Shown here: piece by piece, positions 1,287 through 50,615 of the stretch
Numbering within the stretch: the first letter of the stretch is position 1
Layout: every line of letters starts with the position of its first letter
Source: Alistipes sp.
GTDB taxonomy: Bacteria; Bacteroidota; Bacteroidia; Bacteroidales; Rikenellaceae
DNA length: 64,000 nt
Assembly: GCA_017520545.1 (NCBI GenBank)
Contig: JAFXFM010000004.1
Location: 124,001-188,000 of the forward strand
Direction of reading: 5' to 3'
The notes under the pieces: generated by a model
Told to the model about the DNA's origin: nothing
Databases searched by the model: none
Seen by the model: the letters and a program-made list of their open reading frames with translations, nothing else
Position numbers and translations under genes: made by a program

Positions 1287-1322
1287 AACAAGATGGGTAT
1301 CGTTTTCGATACCCATCTTGTT
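1287..1322. terminator. Bidirectional terminator between the 644 gene and serS
   Basis: A perfect 16-bp stem (AACAAGATGGGTATCG) closes a TTTT loop, and T-rich sequence follows. It sits between the convergent ends of the 644-1207 frame and serS. Its inner 18 nt, GGTATCGTTTTCGATACC, is identical to the hairpin core of the 50-bp repeat array near 45.5-46.2 kb. Confidence 0.85.
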
Positions 1323-1374
1323 TAGTAATTTTGCTATCCGACGACTCGTGCAAAATTAGCCAATCAGAACGATT

Positions 1375-2646
1375 TTAGTCAATCATATCGAAACCTGTGT
1401 AAGGTCGTAATACCTCTGGAATGCGAATACCCTCTGGGGTTTGGTTGTTCTCCAACAACGCTGCAACGATACGTGGGAGAGCCAACGACGAGCCATTGAG
1501 CGTGTGTGCCAACTTGGTCTTTTTGTTCGAGTCCTTATAGCGGAGCTTCAAGCGGTTTGCCTGGAACGACTCAAAGTTCGACACCGACGAAACCTCCAAC
1601 CAACGACCCTGTGCCTCCGAATAGACCTCGAAGTCGTAGGTCAAAGCCGAGGTGAACGACATATCGCCACCGCAAAGACGCAAAATACGATATGGCAAGC
1701 CGAGCGACTTAACCAATCCCTCAACGTGAGCAACCATACCATCGAGAGCCTCGTATGAGTTCTCCGGCAGTGCCAACTGCACAATTTCGACCTTGTCGAA
1801 CTGGTGCAGACGGTTCAAACCGCGCACATCCTTACCATACGAACCCGCCTCACGACGGAAGCAAGGTGTGTAGGCTGTCATCTTCACAGGAAACTCCTTC
1901 TCGTCGAGAATCACATCACGGAAGATGTTTGTAACCGGCACCTCGGCAGTTGGTACGAGGTAGAAGTTATCCGCCGTAGCGTGATACATCTGTCCCTCCT
2001 TGTCAGGCAACTGTCCTGTGCCGAAGCCCGAAGCCTCGTTCACCATCACCGGTGGCTCTACCTCCTGATAGCCTGCGGCTGTGTTGTAGTCGAGGAAGTA
2101 GTTGATAAGTGCACGCTGCAACTTTGCGCCCTTGCCCTTGTATACAGGAAAGCCTGCACCGGTCAATTTTACACCGAGGTCAAAGTCGATAATGTCGTAC
2201 TTCTTCGCCAACTCCCAGTGCGGAAGTGGGTTTTCCGGCAACGCCGAATAGTTCTCGTCAATCTTTACTACGAGATTATCCTCGGCGGTCATACCCTCAG
2301 GAACGATGTCGGCAGGGAAGTTCGGGAGCAACACAATCTGCGCCTGCAACGCCGCCGACGCCTCCTCGTGCTTCGCTGCGAGTTCAGCCGACTTCGCCTT
2401 CAAAGCAGCAACTTGTTGCTTGCGCTCCTCAGCCTCCTCGCGACGGCCCTGACCCATCAGCATACCAATCTCCTTGGCTGCCTTATTCTGCTCGGCAAGG
2501 CAGTTATCCAACTCCATCTGCAATGCCTTGCGGGCATCGTCCAACTCCTCAATCTTTGCGATAACGGGTGCTGCATCGACACCCTTCTTGGCAAGTTTCT
2601 TAATCGCCAACTCCTTATCGCCACGCAATTGTTGTAATGTAAGCAT
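1375..2646 (-). CDS. serS: Serine--tRNA ligase
   Basis: This is a class II aminoacyl-tRNA synthetase of 423 residues, the usual bacterial length, that charges tRNA-Ser (and tRNA-Sec where present). The N-terminal 110 residues form the long antiparallel coiled-coil arm (MLTLQQLRGDKELAIKKLAKKG onward) that grips the tRNA long variable arm. Motif 2 is visible as TPCFRREAGSYGKDVRG and motif 3 as HTLNGSSLALPRIVAALLEN. The start ATG at 2646 is the only sensible one, and a TAAATTTG promoter lies 50 nt upstream. The gene is monocistronic and ends in the strong hairpin at 1287-1322. Confidence 0.97.
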   Translation of the reverse strand: MLTLQQLRGDKELAIKKLAKKGVDAAPVIAKIEELDDARKALQMELDNCLAEQNKAAKEIGMLMGQGRREEAEERKQQVAALKAKSAELAAKHEEASAALQAQIVLLPNFPADIVPEGMTAEDNLVVKIDENYSALPENPLPHWELAKKYDIIDFDLGVKLTGAGFPVYKGKGAKLQRALINYFLDYNTAAGYQEVEPPVMVNEASGFGTGQLPDKEGQMYHATADNFYLVPTAEVPVTNIFRDVILDEKEFPVKMTAYTPCFRREAGSYGKDVRGLNRLHQFDKVEIVQLALPENSYEALDGMVAHVEGLVKSLGLPYRILRLCGGDMSFTSALTYDFEVYSEAQGRWLEVSSVSNFESFQANRLKLRYKDSNKKTKLAHTLNGSSLALPRIVAALLENNQTPEGIRIPEVLRPYTGFDMID

Positions 2647-44054: not shown

Positions 44055-44642
44055 TTATTTAGCATTTGCAGACTTACCTGCCTTACGACGAATTACCTCG
44101 CCTACGAACTTAATACCCTTGCCCTTGTATGGCTCAGGCTTACGCAACGAACGGAGTTTTGCTGCTACCTGACCGATGAGCTGCTTGTCTGCGCTCTTCA
44201 ATGTTACGATAGGAGCACCCTTCTTCTCGGTTACAGCAGTTGCTGTTACCTCCTTTGGAAGCTTCAAATATGTGTCGTGCGAATATCCGAGGCTCATCTC
44301 GAGAACATCTCCCTTAACCTCTGCTTTGAAACCGACACCTACCAACTCTTGCTTAATCTCGTAGCCTTTCGACACACCAACAACCATATTGTTGATGAGT
44401 GCACGATAAAGTCCGTGCAACGAGCGATGACGCGGTTGGTTTGTAGGGCGAGTGACAATCACTGCAGGAACCTCCGCACCGCTCTCCTTCGAGATTGCTG
44501 TACCGACCTCAACAGTAATATCTGAATCAACCTTCTGACTCAGTGTCCCAAGTGGCCCTTTCACGCTTACCGTATTATCTGGTGCGATAGTTACCTCAAC
44601 ACCAGCAGGTAAGATTACAGGTAATTTACCAATTCTTGACAT
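44055..44642 (-). CDS. rplF: 50S ribosomal protein L6
   Basis: The protein has 195 residues and two related domains. The start [20 protein letters not shown] and the end [20 protein letters not shown] are diagnostic. The short basic tail is slightly longer than in E. coli. Confidence 0.97.
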
Positions 44643-44663
44643 TTTGTTTTGGTTTTTAAAAGA

Positions 44664-45056
44664 TTAATAAATGTAGCACAATACCTCGCCACCAACGTTC
44701 TCCTTAACAGCCTGTGCGCCTGTCATAATACCCTTTGATGTCGATACGATTGCAGTTCCGAGACCATTGAGTACGCGTGGCATATCGGCAACCGACGAAT
44801 ACTGACGCAAACCCGGACGCGACACACGCTTCAAATCCTTGATAGCGTTGGTCTTGTCGTTCCACTTCAATGCAATCTTGATGATTGGATGACCCTTCTC
44901 ATCCTTGTCAAACTTGTAAGCAAGGATATAACCCTGCTCGAAGAGAATTCGAGTGATGGCCTCTTTAATTTTTGAGCCAGGAGCTACAACCACCTTGTGG
45001 TTGGCTTTCACTGCGTTTCTAATTCTCGTCAAAAAATCCGCAATTGGATCTGTCAT
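44664..45056 (-). CDS. rpsH: 30S ribosomal protein S8
   Basis: The protein has 130 residues and is a primary 16S rRNA binder. In other bacteria it represses spc-operon translation by binding its own message. MTDPIADFLTRIRNAVKANH and the C-terminal STSKGIMTGAQAVKENVGGE are diagnostic. Here it is the first gene of the unit: rpsN, rplE and the genes before them are absent upstream. The long leader (about 300 nt to the promoter at 45371) could hold an S8-binding control site, by inference. Confidence 0.96.
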   Translation of the reverse strand: MTDPIADFLTRIRNAVKANHKVVVAPGSKIKEAITRILFEQGYILAYKFDKDEKGHPIIKIALKWNDKTNAIKDLKRVSRPGLRQYSSVADMPRVLNGLGTAIVSTSKGIMTGAQAVKENVGGEVLCYIY

Positions 45057-45370
45057 AACTGTAAAGAATTAAAAGTTAAAAATTAAATTGTTTGTTAAAA
45101 ATTTGTTTTTTGCCCGATTTTTCTCGCTTTTTCGACTAAATTTCACAACCGAAAGGCAGAAACTTCGACCTTTCGTATCCAAGTATCCCCCTCGCTTTCC
45201 GACCCTGAAGACGGTTTTTCGTTCATTCTATAAGCACATCTGCTGCGCCTATCACCCATACGAAACCCTCCTTCTGCGAAGCCGTAACCCCATAAGCACC
45301 AACAACTTAGCACCTTTGGCGGTTGTTAAAATGTCAGTTGTCTTGCGACAAAAACTCTATTTCGAGCCTG
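45057..45370 (-). promoter_or_regulatory. Long 5' leader of the rpsH-rplQ operon
   Basis: About 300 nt separate the promoter box from the rpsH ATG. No ribosomal-protein remnant is visible. A 38-codon minus-strand frame exists at 45143-45259 (MGDRRSRCAYRMNEKPSS) with no clear ribosome site. It may be a regulatory leader. Confidence 0.45.
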
Positions 45371-45378
45371 CAAAGATA
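45371..45378 (-). promoter_or_regulatory. -7 box of the rpsH-rplQ operon
   Basis: The minus strand reads TATCTTTG then C. It is the best promoter between the array and rpsH, and would give a leader of about 300 nt. Confidence 0.6.
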
Positions 45379-45536
45379 AACATTATTTCTCACACTACCA
45401 AACAATTACAAAGACTTTTCACTCAGTGAGTAGATAGTAGTGAGTAGGTAAAAAGATATTGCGCACCGCTAACGACTCTAACGCACCAAACGACTCTAAA
45501 ATAGTTGCGCCGTGATAAGATGGTAGCACTCACCCA

Positions 45537-46218
45537 CTATCGCAGGTATTGTTTTCGATACCCGACATACAAAAGGCACTTCTCCACTAACATAGGTATC
45601 GTTTTCGATACCCAACATACAAAAGGCGACACCACACTAACACAGCTATCATTTTCGATACCCGACATACAAAAGGCGACACCACACCAACACAGGTATC
45701 GTTTTCGATACCCAGCACACAAAAGGCGACACCACACCAACACAGGTATCGTTTTCGACACCCGACATACAAAAGGCGACACCGTACAAACACAGGTATT
45801 ATTTTCGATACCCGACATACAAAAGGCGACACCACACCAACACAGGTATCGTTTTCGATACCCGACATACAAAAGGCGACACCACACTAACACAGCTATC
45901 ATTTTCGATACCCGACATACAAAAGGCGACACCACACCAACACAGGTATCGTTTTCGATACCCAACATACAAAAGGCGATACCACACTAACACAGGTATC
46001 ATTTTCGATACCCGACATACAAAAGGCGACACCACACCAACACAGGTATCGTTTTCGATACCCAACATACAAAAGGCGACACCACACCAACACAGGTATC
46101 GTTTTCGATACCCAGCACACAAAAGGCGACACCACACTAACATAGGTATCATTTTCGATACCCAGCACACAAAAGGCGACACCACACCAACACAGGTATC
46201 GTTTTCGACACCTGTGAG
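45537..46218. repeat. Tandem array of 13 units of exactly 50 bp, each with a hairpin
   Basis: Units begin at 45551 and at every 50th base up to 46151, and a partial unit follows at 46201. Each unit carries GGTATCG-TTTT-CGATACC, spanning the unit border, plus a spacer CGACATACAAAAGGCGACAC.. of about 32 bp that is the same in all units. Variants are few: A for G at the loop start, AACATAC or AGCACAC for GACATAC, ACTAA for ACCAA, and GCTATC for GGTATC. The left-most units are the most diverged. Spacers are constant, so it is not CRISPR. Fifty is not a multiple of three, and several frames on both strands happen to be open. Confidence 0.95.
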
Positions 46219-46303
46219 GGGAGGGGCAGGGGTGCTTAATGATAGGTGGCTAACCCATTGGTCATATTGGTCATATTAGCCTCGCGCCCTATTAAGCCAA
46301 CAA
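46219..46303. other. Short gap between the array and the rpoC terminator
   Basis: About 85 bases with no gene. It contains a short direct repeat, TTGGTCATATT, twice in tandem near 46259-46275. Confidence 0.4.
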
Positions 46304-46331
46304 AAAAGGCTCGGAAAATTCCGAGCCTTTT
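46304..46331 (-). terminator. rpoBC operon terminator
   Basis: AAAAGGCTCGG pairs with CCGAGCCTTTT around AAAATT. It lies 28 nt beyond the rpoC stop. Confidence 0.88.
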
Positions 46332-46358
46332 GCTATTATATTTCGCTTATCCGATTGC

Positions 46359-49300
46359 TTATTGCTTTGAGATAAGGAACTCCAAGTCCGACTTCAAACC
46401 TACAACGAGATTGTCGTACTCGCGGAGACCTGTACCACCAGGGATAAGATGACCGCAGATGACGTTCTCTTTGAGGTTTGCCAATGGGTCGCTCTTCGCC
46501 TGAATTGCCGCCTCGTTCAAGACCTTGGTTGTCTCCTGGAACGATGCAGCCGAGATAAAGCTCGAAGTCTGCAACGCCGCACGGGTGATACCCTGAAGAA
46601 TCTGGTTCGAGGTTGCCGATACAATTGGACGAGTCTCAACAAGCTTCATATCACGACGCTTCAACGACGAATTTTCATCGCGCAACTTACGCATCGAGAT
46701 AATCTGACCCGGATGAACGTTTGTCGAGTCGCCCGCATCGGTAACTACTACCTTATCATACAACTCATCGTTTACGTCCATAAACTCCCACTTATCGACA
46801 ATCTGGTTCTCGAAGAAACGCGAATCTCCCGGATCCTCGATTTGAACCTTGTTCATCATCTGACGAACAATTACCTCAAAGTGCTTGTCGTTAATCTTCA
46901 CACCCTGCATACGGTAAACCTCCTGTACCTCGTTTACGATGTACTCCTGAACCTTGGTAGGTCCGAGGATGCGGAGAATATCGCTTGGCGTGATAGCACC
47001 GTCCGACAACGCCATACCTGCGCGAACATAGTCGTTCTCCTGAACGATAATCTGACGCGACAGTGGCACGAGGTAACGCTTAATCTCGCCGTCCTTAGCC
47101 GTAATGACAATCTCGCGGTTACCACGCTTAATTTTGCCAAATGTTACCTCACCGTCAATCTCCGAAACGATTGCTGGATTCGATGGGTTACGAGCCTCGA
47201 ACAGCTCGGTAACTCGTGGAAGACCTCCGGTGATATCGCCGCCGCTCTTACCAACAACGCGCGGAATCTTGATGATGATATCGCCGACGTGAATCTTCGC
47301 ATTATCCTTAACGGCAACGTGAGCATTTACAGGCAAGTTGTATGCCTTAACCTCCTCGCCATTCTTGTCGAGAATTTTAATAACAGGGTTCTTCGTACGA
47401 TCCTTCGAGTCGATAATCACGCGCTCTGCCAAACCGGTCTGGTCGTCGCGCTCCTCACGATAGGTAACACCCTCGATGACGTTGTCATAGATAGCCTTAC
47501 CATCGGTCTCGGCAACAACAACGGCATTGTATGGATCCCACTCGCAAATCAAATCGCCCTTAACGATTGCATCACCATCGTTCTTGAAGATGGTTGCACC
47601 GTACGGCAATGCGTGAGTGTAGAGAACAATCTCGGTCTTTGGATCTACGATGCGCAACTCCGACTGACGCGAAACAACGATATTGATAGCCTCGCCCTGA
47701 GAATTCTTGCCCTTAACGGTGCGCAACTCATCAATTTCAAGGCGTCCCTCATACTTCGAAACAACATTTGTCTCAACGGTTGAACCACCCGCAACACCAC
47801 CGACGTGGAATGTACGGAGGGTAAGCTGTGTACCCGGCTCACCGATAGACTGTGCTGCGATAACGCCGACAACCTCACCCTTCTGAACAGGGCGTGCAGT
47901 TGCGAGGTTACGTCCGTAGCACTTCGCACAAACACCGTGGCGCGATACGCAAGTGAGTACCGAACGGATATCCACAGACTCGATTGGCGACTTCTCGATA
48001 GCCTCGGCAATAGCCTCGGTAATTTCATCACCAGCCTTGCAGATAACCTCTCCGGTGATTGGGTGGATAACATCGTTCAAAGCTGTACGTCCGAGAATTC
48101 GATCGTAGAGAGTCTGAACAACATCGTCGTTACGCTTGATAGCCGTAGCAGTCAAACCACGCAATGTACCACAATCCTCCTCGTTTACGATAACGTCCTG
48201 TGCAACATCAACCAAACGACGTGTCAAGTAACCTGCATCGGCTGTCTTCAACGCGGTATCCGCCAAACCCTTACGAGCACCGTGGGTAGAGATAAAGTAC
48301 TCCAACACCGAAAGTCCCTCCTTAAAGTTCGACAAGATAGGGTTCTCGATAACCTGCTGGCCACCCTCAACACCCGACTTCTGCGGCTTCGCCATCAGAC
48401 CACGCATACCCGACAACTGACGAATCTGCTCGCGCGAACCACGGGCTCCCGAGTCGAGCATCATATATACAGGGTTAAATCCGTCGTCGTTCTTGGTCAA
48501 TGTCTCAACCACCTCCTTGGTGAGCTTATTATTTACGTTTGTCCAAACGTCGATAATCTGGTTATAACGCTCGTTATTGGTGATAAGACCCATATTATAG
48601 TCGTCGATAATGGCATCTGCCTTCTCGTATCCCTCCTGAACGAGCTTCTCCTTCGACTCCGGAATAATTACGGCCTCCAAGTTGAACGACAAACCACCTC
48701 GGAATGCCATCTGGTAACCCATATTCTTAATGTCGTCGAGGAACTTCGCAACCTTATCGGCACCCGCCTTCTTCATCACTACCGAGATAATATCACGGAG
48801 CGACTTCTTGGTGAGCAAAGTATTTACGTAGCCAACCTCCTCAGGTACAACCTGATTTACGAGGATACGACCGATAGTAGTATCCTTCAATACGGTTACA
48901 GGGTTGCCATTCTCATCAAGATCACGAACACGGCACTTAACCGATGCGTGGATATCTGCACGACCCTCGTTGTAGGCGATAATTGCCTCCTCCGGACCGT
49001 AGAATGTCAATCCCTCACCCTTAACTCCCGGACGAGCCTTGGTGATGTAGTAAAGACCAAGGACCATATCCTGCGATGGCACGGTAATAGGTGCACCATT
49101 CGCCGGGTTAAGGACGTTGTGAGAACCGAGCATAAGAAGCTGTGCCTCCAAAATTGCGGCGTTACCGAGTGGCAAGTGTACCGCCATCTGGTCACCGTCG
49201 AAGTCGGCGTTGAACGCTGTACACGAGAGTGGGTGCAACTGCATTGCCTTACCCTCGATAAGCTTCGGCTGGAACGCCTGAATACCCAAACGGTGAAGGG

Positions 49301-50615
49301 TTGGTGCACGGTTCATCAATACAGGGTGTCCCTTGATTACATTCTCCAAAATGCCCCAAATCACAGGATCCTTTCTATCGATAATCTTCTTTGCCGACTT
49401 AACTGTCTTGACGATACCGCGCTCGATGAGCTTGCGAATGATAAATGGCTTGTACAACTCCGCAGCCATATCCTTCGGCATACCCATCTCGTGCATCTTC
49501 AACTCCGGACCCACGACAATAACCGAACGTGCCGAGTAATCAACACGCTTACCGAGCAAGTTCTGACGGAAACGTCCCTGCTTACCCTTCAACGAATCGG
49601 ACAACGACTTCAATGGTCGGTTGCTCTCGTTCTTTACGGCATTGCTCTTACGCGAGTTGTCGAACAGAGAATCGACAGCCTCCTGCAACATACGCTTCTC
49701 GTTACGGAGAATAACCTCCGGTGCCTTGATATCGATCAAGCGACGAAGACGGTTGTTACGGATAATTACGCGACGATACAAATCGTTCAAATCCGAAGTT
49801 GCGAAACGACCTCCGTCGAGTGGTACCAATGGACGAATCTCCGGTGGAATAACCGGAATAACGTCGAGTACCATCCACTCCGGATGGTTCTTACCCTGCG
49901 ACGCGCGGAATGACTCAACTACGTTGAGCTGCTTCAACAACTCGCTCTTACGCTGCTGCGAAGTCTCACGCGATGCACGATCTCGCAAATTGTATGACAT
50001 AGTGTCGAGATCAACATCCTGCAAGAGAATTTTGATTGCCTCGGCACCCATCATTGCTATAAACTTGTTAGGATCATCATTCGGGAGTTGCTGATTGCCC
50101 TTTGGCAATGCTGCAATGATATCGGTGTACTCCTTCTCGCCAAGGGTCTGCAATTTCTCTACACCCTGCTCCGAAGCAGCACCCGCCTGAATAACGACGT
50201 AACGCTCATAGTAGATAATCGACTCCAACTTCTTCGATGGAATACCCAACAGATATCCTATCTTCGAAGGAAGCGACTTGAAGTACCAAATGTGTACTAC
50301 CGGCACCACCAACGAGATATGACCCATACGCTCGCGGCGCACCTTCTTCTCGGTAACCTCCACACCACATCGGTCGCAGACGATACCCTTGTAACGAATA
50401 CGCTTGTACTTTCCGCAGTGGCACTCGTAGTCCTTCATAGGACCAAAAATGCGCTCACAGAAGAGTCCGTCACGCTCCGGCTTGTAGGTACGATAGTTGA
50501 TGGTCTCTGGTTTCAAGACCTCACCGCTCGACTGCGCCAAAATCTCCTCAGGAGATGCAAGGCTCACCGAAATACGGTTGTAACCGCCCTTTGAATTGTC
50601 TTTGTTGAATGACAT
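46359..50615 (-). CDS. rpoC: RNA polymerase subunit beta-prime
   Basis: The protein has 1418 residues. The N-terminal zinc ribbon is [20 protein letters not shown], the catalytic magnesium loop is [15 protein letters not shown], and the second zinc site is [13 protein letters not shown]. It follows rpoB by 38 nt. Downstream, the usual rpsL/rpsG/fusA block does not appear. Instead the terminator and the 50-bp array follow. Confidence 0.98.

What the first reader, a model, noticed from the sequence alone, without database searches (positions are those of the whole stretch)
45537..46218. Fifty-base tandem array, 13 units, each with a perfect-type hairpin, next to rpoC
The period is exactly 50 bp over 650 bp, with a hairpin GGTATCG-TTTT-CGATACC in most units and a constant spacer. 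It sits inside the core transcription/translation cluster, between the rpoC terminator and the rpsH promoter. Transcribed from either strand, it would give a string of 13 stem-loops, for example as a protein-binding or insulating element. Constant spacers exclude CRISPR. I know of no named family with this unit, but I could not search.
Basis: seen in the sequence. Interest (0 to 1): 0.85.

Follow-up and report, generated by a model that had tools for sequence, protein, structure and literature searches.

The report
Gene-end palindrome array near rpoC
The 50-base repeat beside rpoC is one copy of an unnamed family of short hairpin-forming repeats that sit just after genes in a group of uncultured gut bacteria and may descend from the tips of ordinary transcription stop signals.

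Summary
The array is real: 14 palindromes GGTATCG-TTTT-CGATACC, every 50 bp, window 45545-46212. It is not a one-off rpoC element. The 18-bp core is dispersed through this genome (109 sites within 2 mismatches, control 18), singly and in other arrays, mostly at 48-56 or 64-80 bp spacing. It lies between genes, mostly at gene 3' ends, and is rare between divergent genes. High copy number marks one subclade of the genus plus one species of its sister group. The rpoC array occurs in 1 of 25 rpoC loci. In a sister genus, and in 26 of 64 single copies here, the core tips a longer hairpin, usually followed by a T-rich tail as in intrinsic terminators. Array copies mostly have neither. The REP transposase domain, GTAG/CGTC tags and a DNA-uptake-type half-site excess were tested and not found. 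Best reading: a REP/BIME-like gene-end palindrome, probably derived from terminator tips and amplified in tandem, acting, if at all, as a string of 3'-end hairpins. Function, binding factor and means of spread are unproven.

The parts
45545..46212 (.). Array of 14 palindromic cores (GGTATCG-TTTT-CGATACC on +) at 50-bp steps with a 32-bp shared spacer
45595..45612 (.). One of the six perfect cores (others at 45695, 45845, 45945, 46045, 46095)
45613..45644 (.). One 32-bp spacer; GT-rich on the - strand, with AAAA loops on that strand in all 14 cores (the reverse of most other arrays)
46304..46331 (-). Terminator-like hairpin of rpoC, separate from the array
   Evidence: scan lists it on +; the stem is symmetric, and rpoC runs on -
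46359..50615 (-). rpoC (named from its sequence; 1418 aa ORF)
45141..45409 (-). Upstream region of rpsH conserved in G056 and G057, with a Bacteroidota-type promoter-like stretch (motif recalled)
44664..45056 (-). rpsH (130 aa)
1287..1322 (.). Single core (1296-1313) as the tip of a 16-bp-stem hairpin between two convergent genes (one is serS); terminator form of the same element

Best explanation
It is one locus of a lineage-specific, REP/BIME-like family of intergenic palindromic repeats. The conserved part is an 18-bp palindrome (GGTATCG, four T or four A, CGATACC). The core most likely began as the tip of long-stem, often bidirectional intrinsic terminators, a form still seen in a sister genus and in some single copies here. 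In one subclade of the genus it left that setting and multiplied at gene ends as tandem arrays of core plus spacer (mostly 30-38 or 46-62 bp). The rpoC-rpsH array grew from one founder unit in this lineage, at a place where relatives carry xerD-recO or other sequence. Proposed working: transcribed with the mRNA 3' region, each core folds into a 7-bp hairpin; without U-tracts the string would slow 3' exonucleases or weakly affect read-through rather than terminate by itself; identical hairpin units slip or recombine, so copy number drifts. Shown: dispersal, gene-end placement, two forms, clade restriction, copy-number differences at shared loci. Inferred: direction of descent, RNA-level action, slippage.
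For: Dispersed core: 109 sites against 18 control at up to 2 mismatches, 35 against 0 at none. Of 225 distinct cores in fetched stretches 0 lie in called genes; gaps with cores 30 convergent, 31 co-directional, 2 divergent against 13, 64, 36 for gaps without (Fisher p 2.8e-7 for convergent, 2.2e-6 for divergent). Terminator form: T-rich tail (5 or more T in 11) on at least one strand in 11 of 15 sites of genus g20, 19 of 26 long-stem singles here, 3 of 38 short-stem singles, 19 of 176 array cores; on both strands 8, 9, 0, 0. Outer stems of singles covary (z up to 5.0 over 64 singles), not in arrays. The 12 genomes with 4 or more copies on the rpoC tree form one clade (96/95). Shared loci with different unit numbers: 7, 2, 2 and 1, 5, 5. 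Array at rpoC in G000 only.
Against: 38 of 64 single copies have a short stem and 35 of those no T-rich tail; in this genome only 6 of 20 singles have 4 or more extra stem pairs. Several long-stem copies of G107 have G-runs, not T-runs, after the stem. The core is held far more constant than pairing alone needs. In co-directional gaps the sense strand shows A and U loops equally (16 and 15) and no G-U excess over A-C mismatches (13 to 9), so RNA-level selection on the array core is not shown. No mobilising enzyme and no expression data. The g20 and other sites were found through similarity to the core, so its constancy among them is partly selection.
Confidence: 0.5

Rival explanations
1. The core is a duplex-DNA site for a dimeric DNA-binding protein (nucleoid, chromosome-organising or regulatory). 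Arrays are high-affinity clusters, much as sopC of plasmid F (12 repeats of 43 bp, each with a 7-bp inverted repeat; recalled) is for SopB.
For: Two-fold symmetric core, A4 or T4 centre, loop orientation indifferent to transcription (16 to 15), core nearly fixed while spacers average 48% and 36% identity, spacing classes about 20-21 bp apart (Rayleigh p about 2e-13 on 78 non-redundant spacings, though shared ancestry of spacers weakens this). Amplified at least twice in different settings.
Against: Near-absence between divergent genes and absence from genes is unlike a chromosome-wide architectural site; covarying outer stems in singles and terminator-like sites in g20 need RNA. No candidate protein was looked for genome-wide.
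Confidence: 0.25
2. A functionless selfish or accidental minisatellite: a non-autonomous mobile fragment or hairpin-driven duplication that survives where it does least harm, namely at gene ends.
For: Patchy copy number, 4 to 85 among multi-copy carriers; other repeated modules crowd the same intergenic regions; unit number changes at shared loci; avoidance of genes and of divergent gaps fits mere purging.
Against: The core stays nearly constant while spacers diverge, which plain duplication would not give; the same core caps terminator-like hairpins in another genus.
Confidence: 0.2
3. Assembly artefact at rpoC-rpsH: the array or the join was made by a short-read assembler.
For: Draft assembly of 24 contigs; some other copies lie near contig ends (C8, C17, C24); rpsN and xerD-recO were not found in it.
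Against: G056, a separate assembly, also has rpoC close to rpsH in the same order, with xerD-recO between; arrays of the same core occur in six other named assemblies; units carry distinguishing variants.
Confidence: 0.05

Closest known systems
REP / BIME repeats (PMC3733652 abstract and passages; PMC2817692 passages)
   Same: Short extragenic palindromes in about 100 copies, mostly between convergent and co-directional genes, single or clustered with other modules; hairpins thought to act at RNA ends or bind proteins
   Different: No GTAG/CGTC tag, no Y1 transposase in 12 genomes tried, arrays head-to-tail and not alternating, core fixed at 18 bp
BrickBuilt minisatellite-MITE of Porphyromonas gingivalis (PMC4596501, abstract and one section)
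   Same: Same bacterial order; intergenic tandem arrays dispersed in the genome with unit number varying between strains
   Different: 23-nt units without spacers, leader and tail with terminal inverted repeats and target duplications; none of these was seen here
Uptake sequences in terminators of Neisseria and Pasteurellaceae (PMC1852404, passages)
   Same: One fixed sequence built into many terminator hairpins, commonest between convergent genes
   Different: No excess of the half-site outside cores (80 seen, 84.3 expected from its sub-words, 30.2 from base composition alone)
sopC-type centromere arrays (recalled)
   Same: Tandem units of similar length, each with a 7-bp inverted repeat
   Different: Many chromosomal sites at gene ends; no match in the 72,556 plasmid records

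Membership tests
REP (GTAG/CGTC superfamilies) | High-copy extragenic palindrome at gene ends | tested here: met
   core is 18 bp against the 20-40 bp usual for REPs
REP (GTAG/CGTC superfamilies) | Conserved unpaired GTAG or CGTC tag | tested here: not met
   GTAG 5, CTAC 0, CGTC 1, GACG 4 of 240 cores within 6 nt
REP (GTAG/CGTC superfamilies) | Associated Y1 (RAYT) transposase | tested here: not met
   PF01797 0 of 12 genomes (6 of them carriers); controls positive. Described CGTC REPs also lack one (PMC3733652 abstract)
BIME | Palindromes in alternating orientation with mosaic modules | tested here: not met
   mosaic modules present, but loops agree in direction in most neighbouring pairs (114 T-T, 20 A-A, 9 mixed of 147)
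BrickBuilt MITE | Terminal inverted repeats and target-site duplication | tested here: inconclusive
   no common ends seen by eye in the flanks shown; no clean empty site was found
Intrinsic terminator | Stem followed by U-tract: array cores | tested here: not met
   19 of 176 on one strand, 0 on both
Intrinsic terminator | Stem followed by U-tract: long-stem single copies and g20 copies | tested here: met
   19 of 26 and 11 of 15; termination itself not measured
CRISPR | Unrelated spacers between repeats | tested here: not met
   spacers related
DNA uptake sequence | Half-site in excess across the genome | tested here: not met
   on 261,308 bases of this genome
sopC-type centromere | Bound by a partition protein | not testable with these tools
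   needs a binding assay

The most novel reading that the evidence does not exclude
GGTATCG-A4/T4-CGATACC is the recognition element of an unknown trans-acting factor in this bacterial family (a hairpin- or palindrome-specific binding protein or endonuclease at gene 3' ends). The factor holds the core constant in two genera, had it built into terminators with unrelated outer stems, and drove two separate amplifications, one into head-to-tail arrays, without a REP-type transposase.
Probability: 0.2. Interest if true: 0.75.

Novelty: new variant of a known kind. Interest (0 to 1): 0.5.

Why it matters
If right, REP-like gene-end palindromes have arisen outside the known tagged, transposase-linked families, from terminator tips, with both forms still present in living relatives, so the origin of extragenic palindromes becomes testable by comparison. 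The repeat also sits at an operon breakpoint and near several contig ends in gut Bacteroidales assemblies.

Tried and rejected
CRISPR, rejected: related spacers. Coding repeat, rejected by inference: the period is not a multiple of 3, and ORFs of 161 aa on + and 143 and 128 aa on - lie over the same array; no family search was run on them. Rfam over 44500-47000: 3 weak hits, all below gathering score and all over the rpoC terminator. RAYT-driven REP: PF01797 in 0 of 12 genomes. Uptake sequence: no half-site excess over its sub-words; a first look in the window alone gave GGTATCG 22 against a mean of 7.4 for shuffled words, maximum 29. A fold conserved in spacers: none (one search stopped with a script error after one result that paired only the flanking arms). 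G-U bias in the sense strand: 13 to 9 (p 0.40 for the 14 to 9). Viral, plasmid and phage collections: no match. Papers: the core sequence in 0 papers; listings showed no description of this repeat (listings only, apart from the papers named). The first gene-context tally was spoiled by small ORFs inside arrays and replaced, which held duplicate stretches, removed. Two hits outside the family (Bacilli assembly L058, 23-bp period; Shinella L068, other loops) were set aside as different in layout. From I fetched 17 stretches and used the 13 of genus g20; the four from G216, G197, G176 and G153 lacked a paired flank or T-tail and were left out.

Full report
What is there. Window 45545-46212 holds 14 copies of an 18-bp palindrome, GGTATCG-TTTT-CGATACC, at exact 50-bp steps with a shared 32-bp spacer. 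Six cores are perfect, five have one change, three have two. The array ends 147 bp from the rpoC stop codon, after a separate terminator-like hairpin (46304-46331), and before an rpsH upstream region conserved in G056 and G057 (45141-45409). Both strands fold better than shuffles.

It is one locus of many. In the same genome (1.93 Mb, 24 contigs) the arm pattern GGTATCG-N4-CGATACC has 109 sites at up to 2 mismatches against 18 for the reversed pattern, and 35 perfect sites against 0. Other arrays (L027, L029, L033 and others) and single copies exist. A scan of genome contigs (one genome for each of 84,980 species) for two perfect palindromes 25-55 bp apart gave 21 stretches: 19 from six Rikenellaceae/Alistipes assemblies (five from ruminants by their titles), one Bacilli assembly and one Shinella, both laid out differently (the window's own genome may be left out of that scan). 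No match in viral contigs, plasmids or phages.

Distribution. Of the 180 held genomes of the genus, 24 have the core at up to 1 mismatch; the reversed control hit once in all. Copies: G112 85, G000 60, G107 34, G128 19, G056 15, G005 12, G077 10, G082 8, G140 8, G118 6, G057 6, G110 4, G048 4, the other 11 genomes 1-3. I asked for rpoC in 30 genomes; 26 matched, G107, G138, G039 and G029 did not, and G010 and G142 gave fragments that I left out. On the tree of 25 rows (24 genomes; G057 has a second, probably foreign, copy) the 12 genomes with four or more copies form one clade (96/95, bootstrap not fully settled); the other 12 have 0-3. On a serS tree of 25 genomes the ten with four or more copies other than G107 group together (90/87), and G107 falls in the sister group beside genomes with 0-1 copies (G128 and G057 gave no serS match). 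So there were at least two expansions. In 150 family genomes 16 have a match, in 5 of 22 genera.

Context. Of 225 distinct cores in fetched stretches (15 duplicates dropped) none lies in a called gene. Gaps with cores: 30 convergent, 31 co-directional, 2 divergent; gaps without, in the same stretches: 13, 64, 36 (Fisher p 2.8e-7 for convergent, 2.2e-6 for divergent). Genes were called by a simple codon-score script, and the stretches were chosen because most hold cores. This placement is that reported for REPs (PMC3733652, abstract and passages).

Two forms. In some single copies the stem runs on beyond the core with different but complementary letters (CAAGATG/CATCTTG, AAGACG/CGTCTT, GGGCG/CGCCC and others). 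Pairing there exceeds shuffles with z up to 5.0 over 64 singles, and does not in array cores (176, of which 175 could be used). In a second genus of the family (g20; 13 stretches of six genomes) the same tip, GGTATC-six bases-GATACC, caps hairpins such as AAAAAACTCACG-core-CGTGAGTTTTTT. A T-rich tail (5 or more T in 11) follows the stem on at least one strand in 11 of 15 g20 sites, 19 of 26 long-stem singles, 3 of 38 short-stem singles and 19 of 176 array cores; on both strands in 8, 9, 0 and 0. So one form looks like bidirectional terminators, while the array form has little more than the core. Against this, most singles (38 of 64) are short-stemmed, and several long-stem G107 copies end in G-runs. 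At the serS 3' end, of 16 loci printed, G000 and G082 share a core-tipped hairpin (G082's with changes), and others carry different sequence, G077 and G118 another hairpin.

Spacers. Between cores the DNA is GT-rich on one strand and related among arrays, but after removal of near copies averages only 48% (34 spacers, 49-54 bp class) and 36% (27 spacers, 69-74 bp class) identity, with no consensus fold. The loop is TTTT on the GT-rich strand at both ends of 114 of 147 spacers and AAAA at both ends of 20; all 14 window cores are of the AAAA kind. Since they are all flipped the same way, the array probably grew from one founder. Recurring variants (GCTATCA at 45645 and 45895) fit unequal duplication.

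Change over time. After an M50-peptidase gene there are 7 units in G000, 2 in G056 and 2 in G128, and a single copy with similar flanks in G048; beside another gene (Radical SAM/TRAM) 1 in G000, 5 in G112 and 5 in RGIG9899 (G056, G112 and G128 equated with SIG168, RGIG5255 and RGIG7672 from matching contig lengths and positions). At rpoC only G000 has the array: none of 24 other rpoC loci has a core downstream, 21 of them with more than 1 kb read. Seven of the 24 have xerD there, six close and one further off, and G056 runs rpoC-xerD-recO-rpsH. xerD-recO and rpsN were not found in the G000 assembly, whereas rpsN precedes rpsH in 24 of 30 rpsH loci; the other six are G000, G056, G057 and three with short upstream sequence. 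The array therefore marks a breakpoint in this lineage. Whether it caused the rearrangement is unknown.

Mechanism. I favour a gene-end hairpin repeat derived from terminator tips and amplified in tandem. What suggests that something reads the sequence, not just the fold, is that the core stays almost fixed across two genera and two expansions while outer stems, spacers and loop direction vary; part of that constancy comes from having searched with the core. Arm changes with both sides altered are few here (GGTATTG/CAATACC in 3 of 240 sites), with two more in g20 (GGTAAC/GTTACC in L232, GGTATTA/TAATACC in L242). Equal A and U loops in sense strands (16 and 15) and no significant G-U excess (13 against 9) keep a duplex-DNA site open. 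No trans factor was identified.

Compared with what is known. REP/BIME repeats match in placement and mosaic habit but not in tag, transposase or alternating order. BrickBuilt of P. gingivalis (PMC4596501, abstract and one section) is the nearest array that I found in the same order, with different units and ends. Uptake sequences in terminators (PMC1852404, passages) are the nearest case of a fixed sequence in many terminators, but the half-site excess is missing here. HuH endonucleases of Bacteroidetes with atypical flanking structures are described (PMC6006769, passages); only Pfam Y1_Tnp was searched for here. The core sequence itself was in no paper of the library.

Noticed in passing
window 1328-1377: A second dispersed repeat of about 50 bp, beside the serS hairpin, matches many places at 79-92% identity in this genome and relatives; its sense looks like ...GCCAATCAGAACGATTTT.
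   Followed up: partly
L027:4610-4728, L044:1400-1500, L054:1480-1596: A recurring module with its own inverted repeats (GAGATTAAAGAATTTAGGGAGTTTAGCGA...CTCCCTAATCTCATTAAATTCCCTACACTCCCTACTGCCG) directly precedes the first core at several loci.
   Followed up: partly
window 44664-46359: The spc-type operon is broken between rpsN and rpsH: rpsH follows rpoC here, and rpsN and xerD-recO were not found in this assembly.
   Followed up: partly
L169 (G107:C24): G107, outside the main clade, has its own array with 69-96 bp spacing, and many of its single copies carry CGTG/CACG next to the core.
   Followed up: partly
L058:4281-4367: A rabbit Bacilli assembly has four near-identical palindromes of the same core at a 23-bp period; unexplained, perhaps chance or independent.
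   Followed up: no
L192, L063, L066, L043: Degenerate cores that stay palindromic (for example with shortened or lengthened loops, or GGGTACG...CGTACCC), as template switching within inverted repeats might leave.
   Followed up: no
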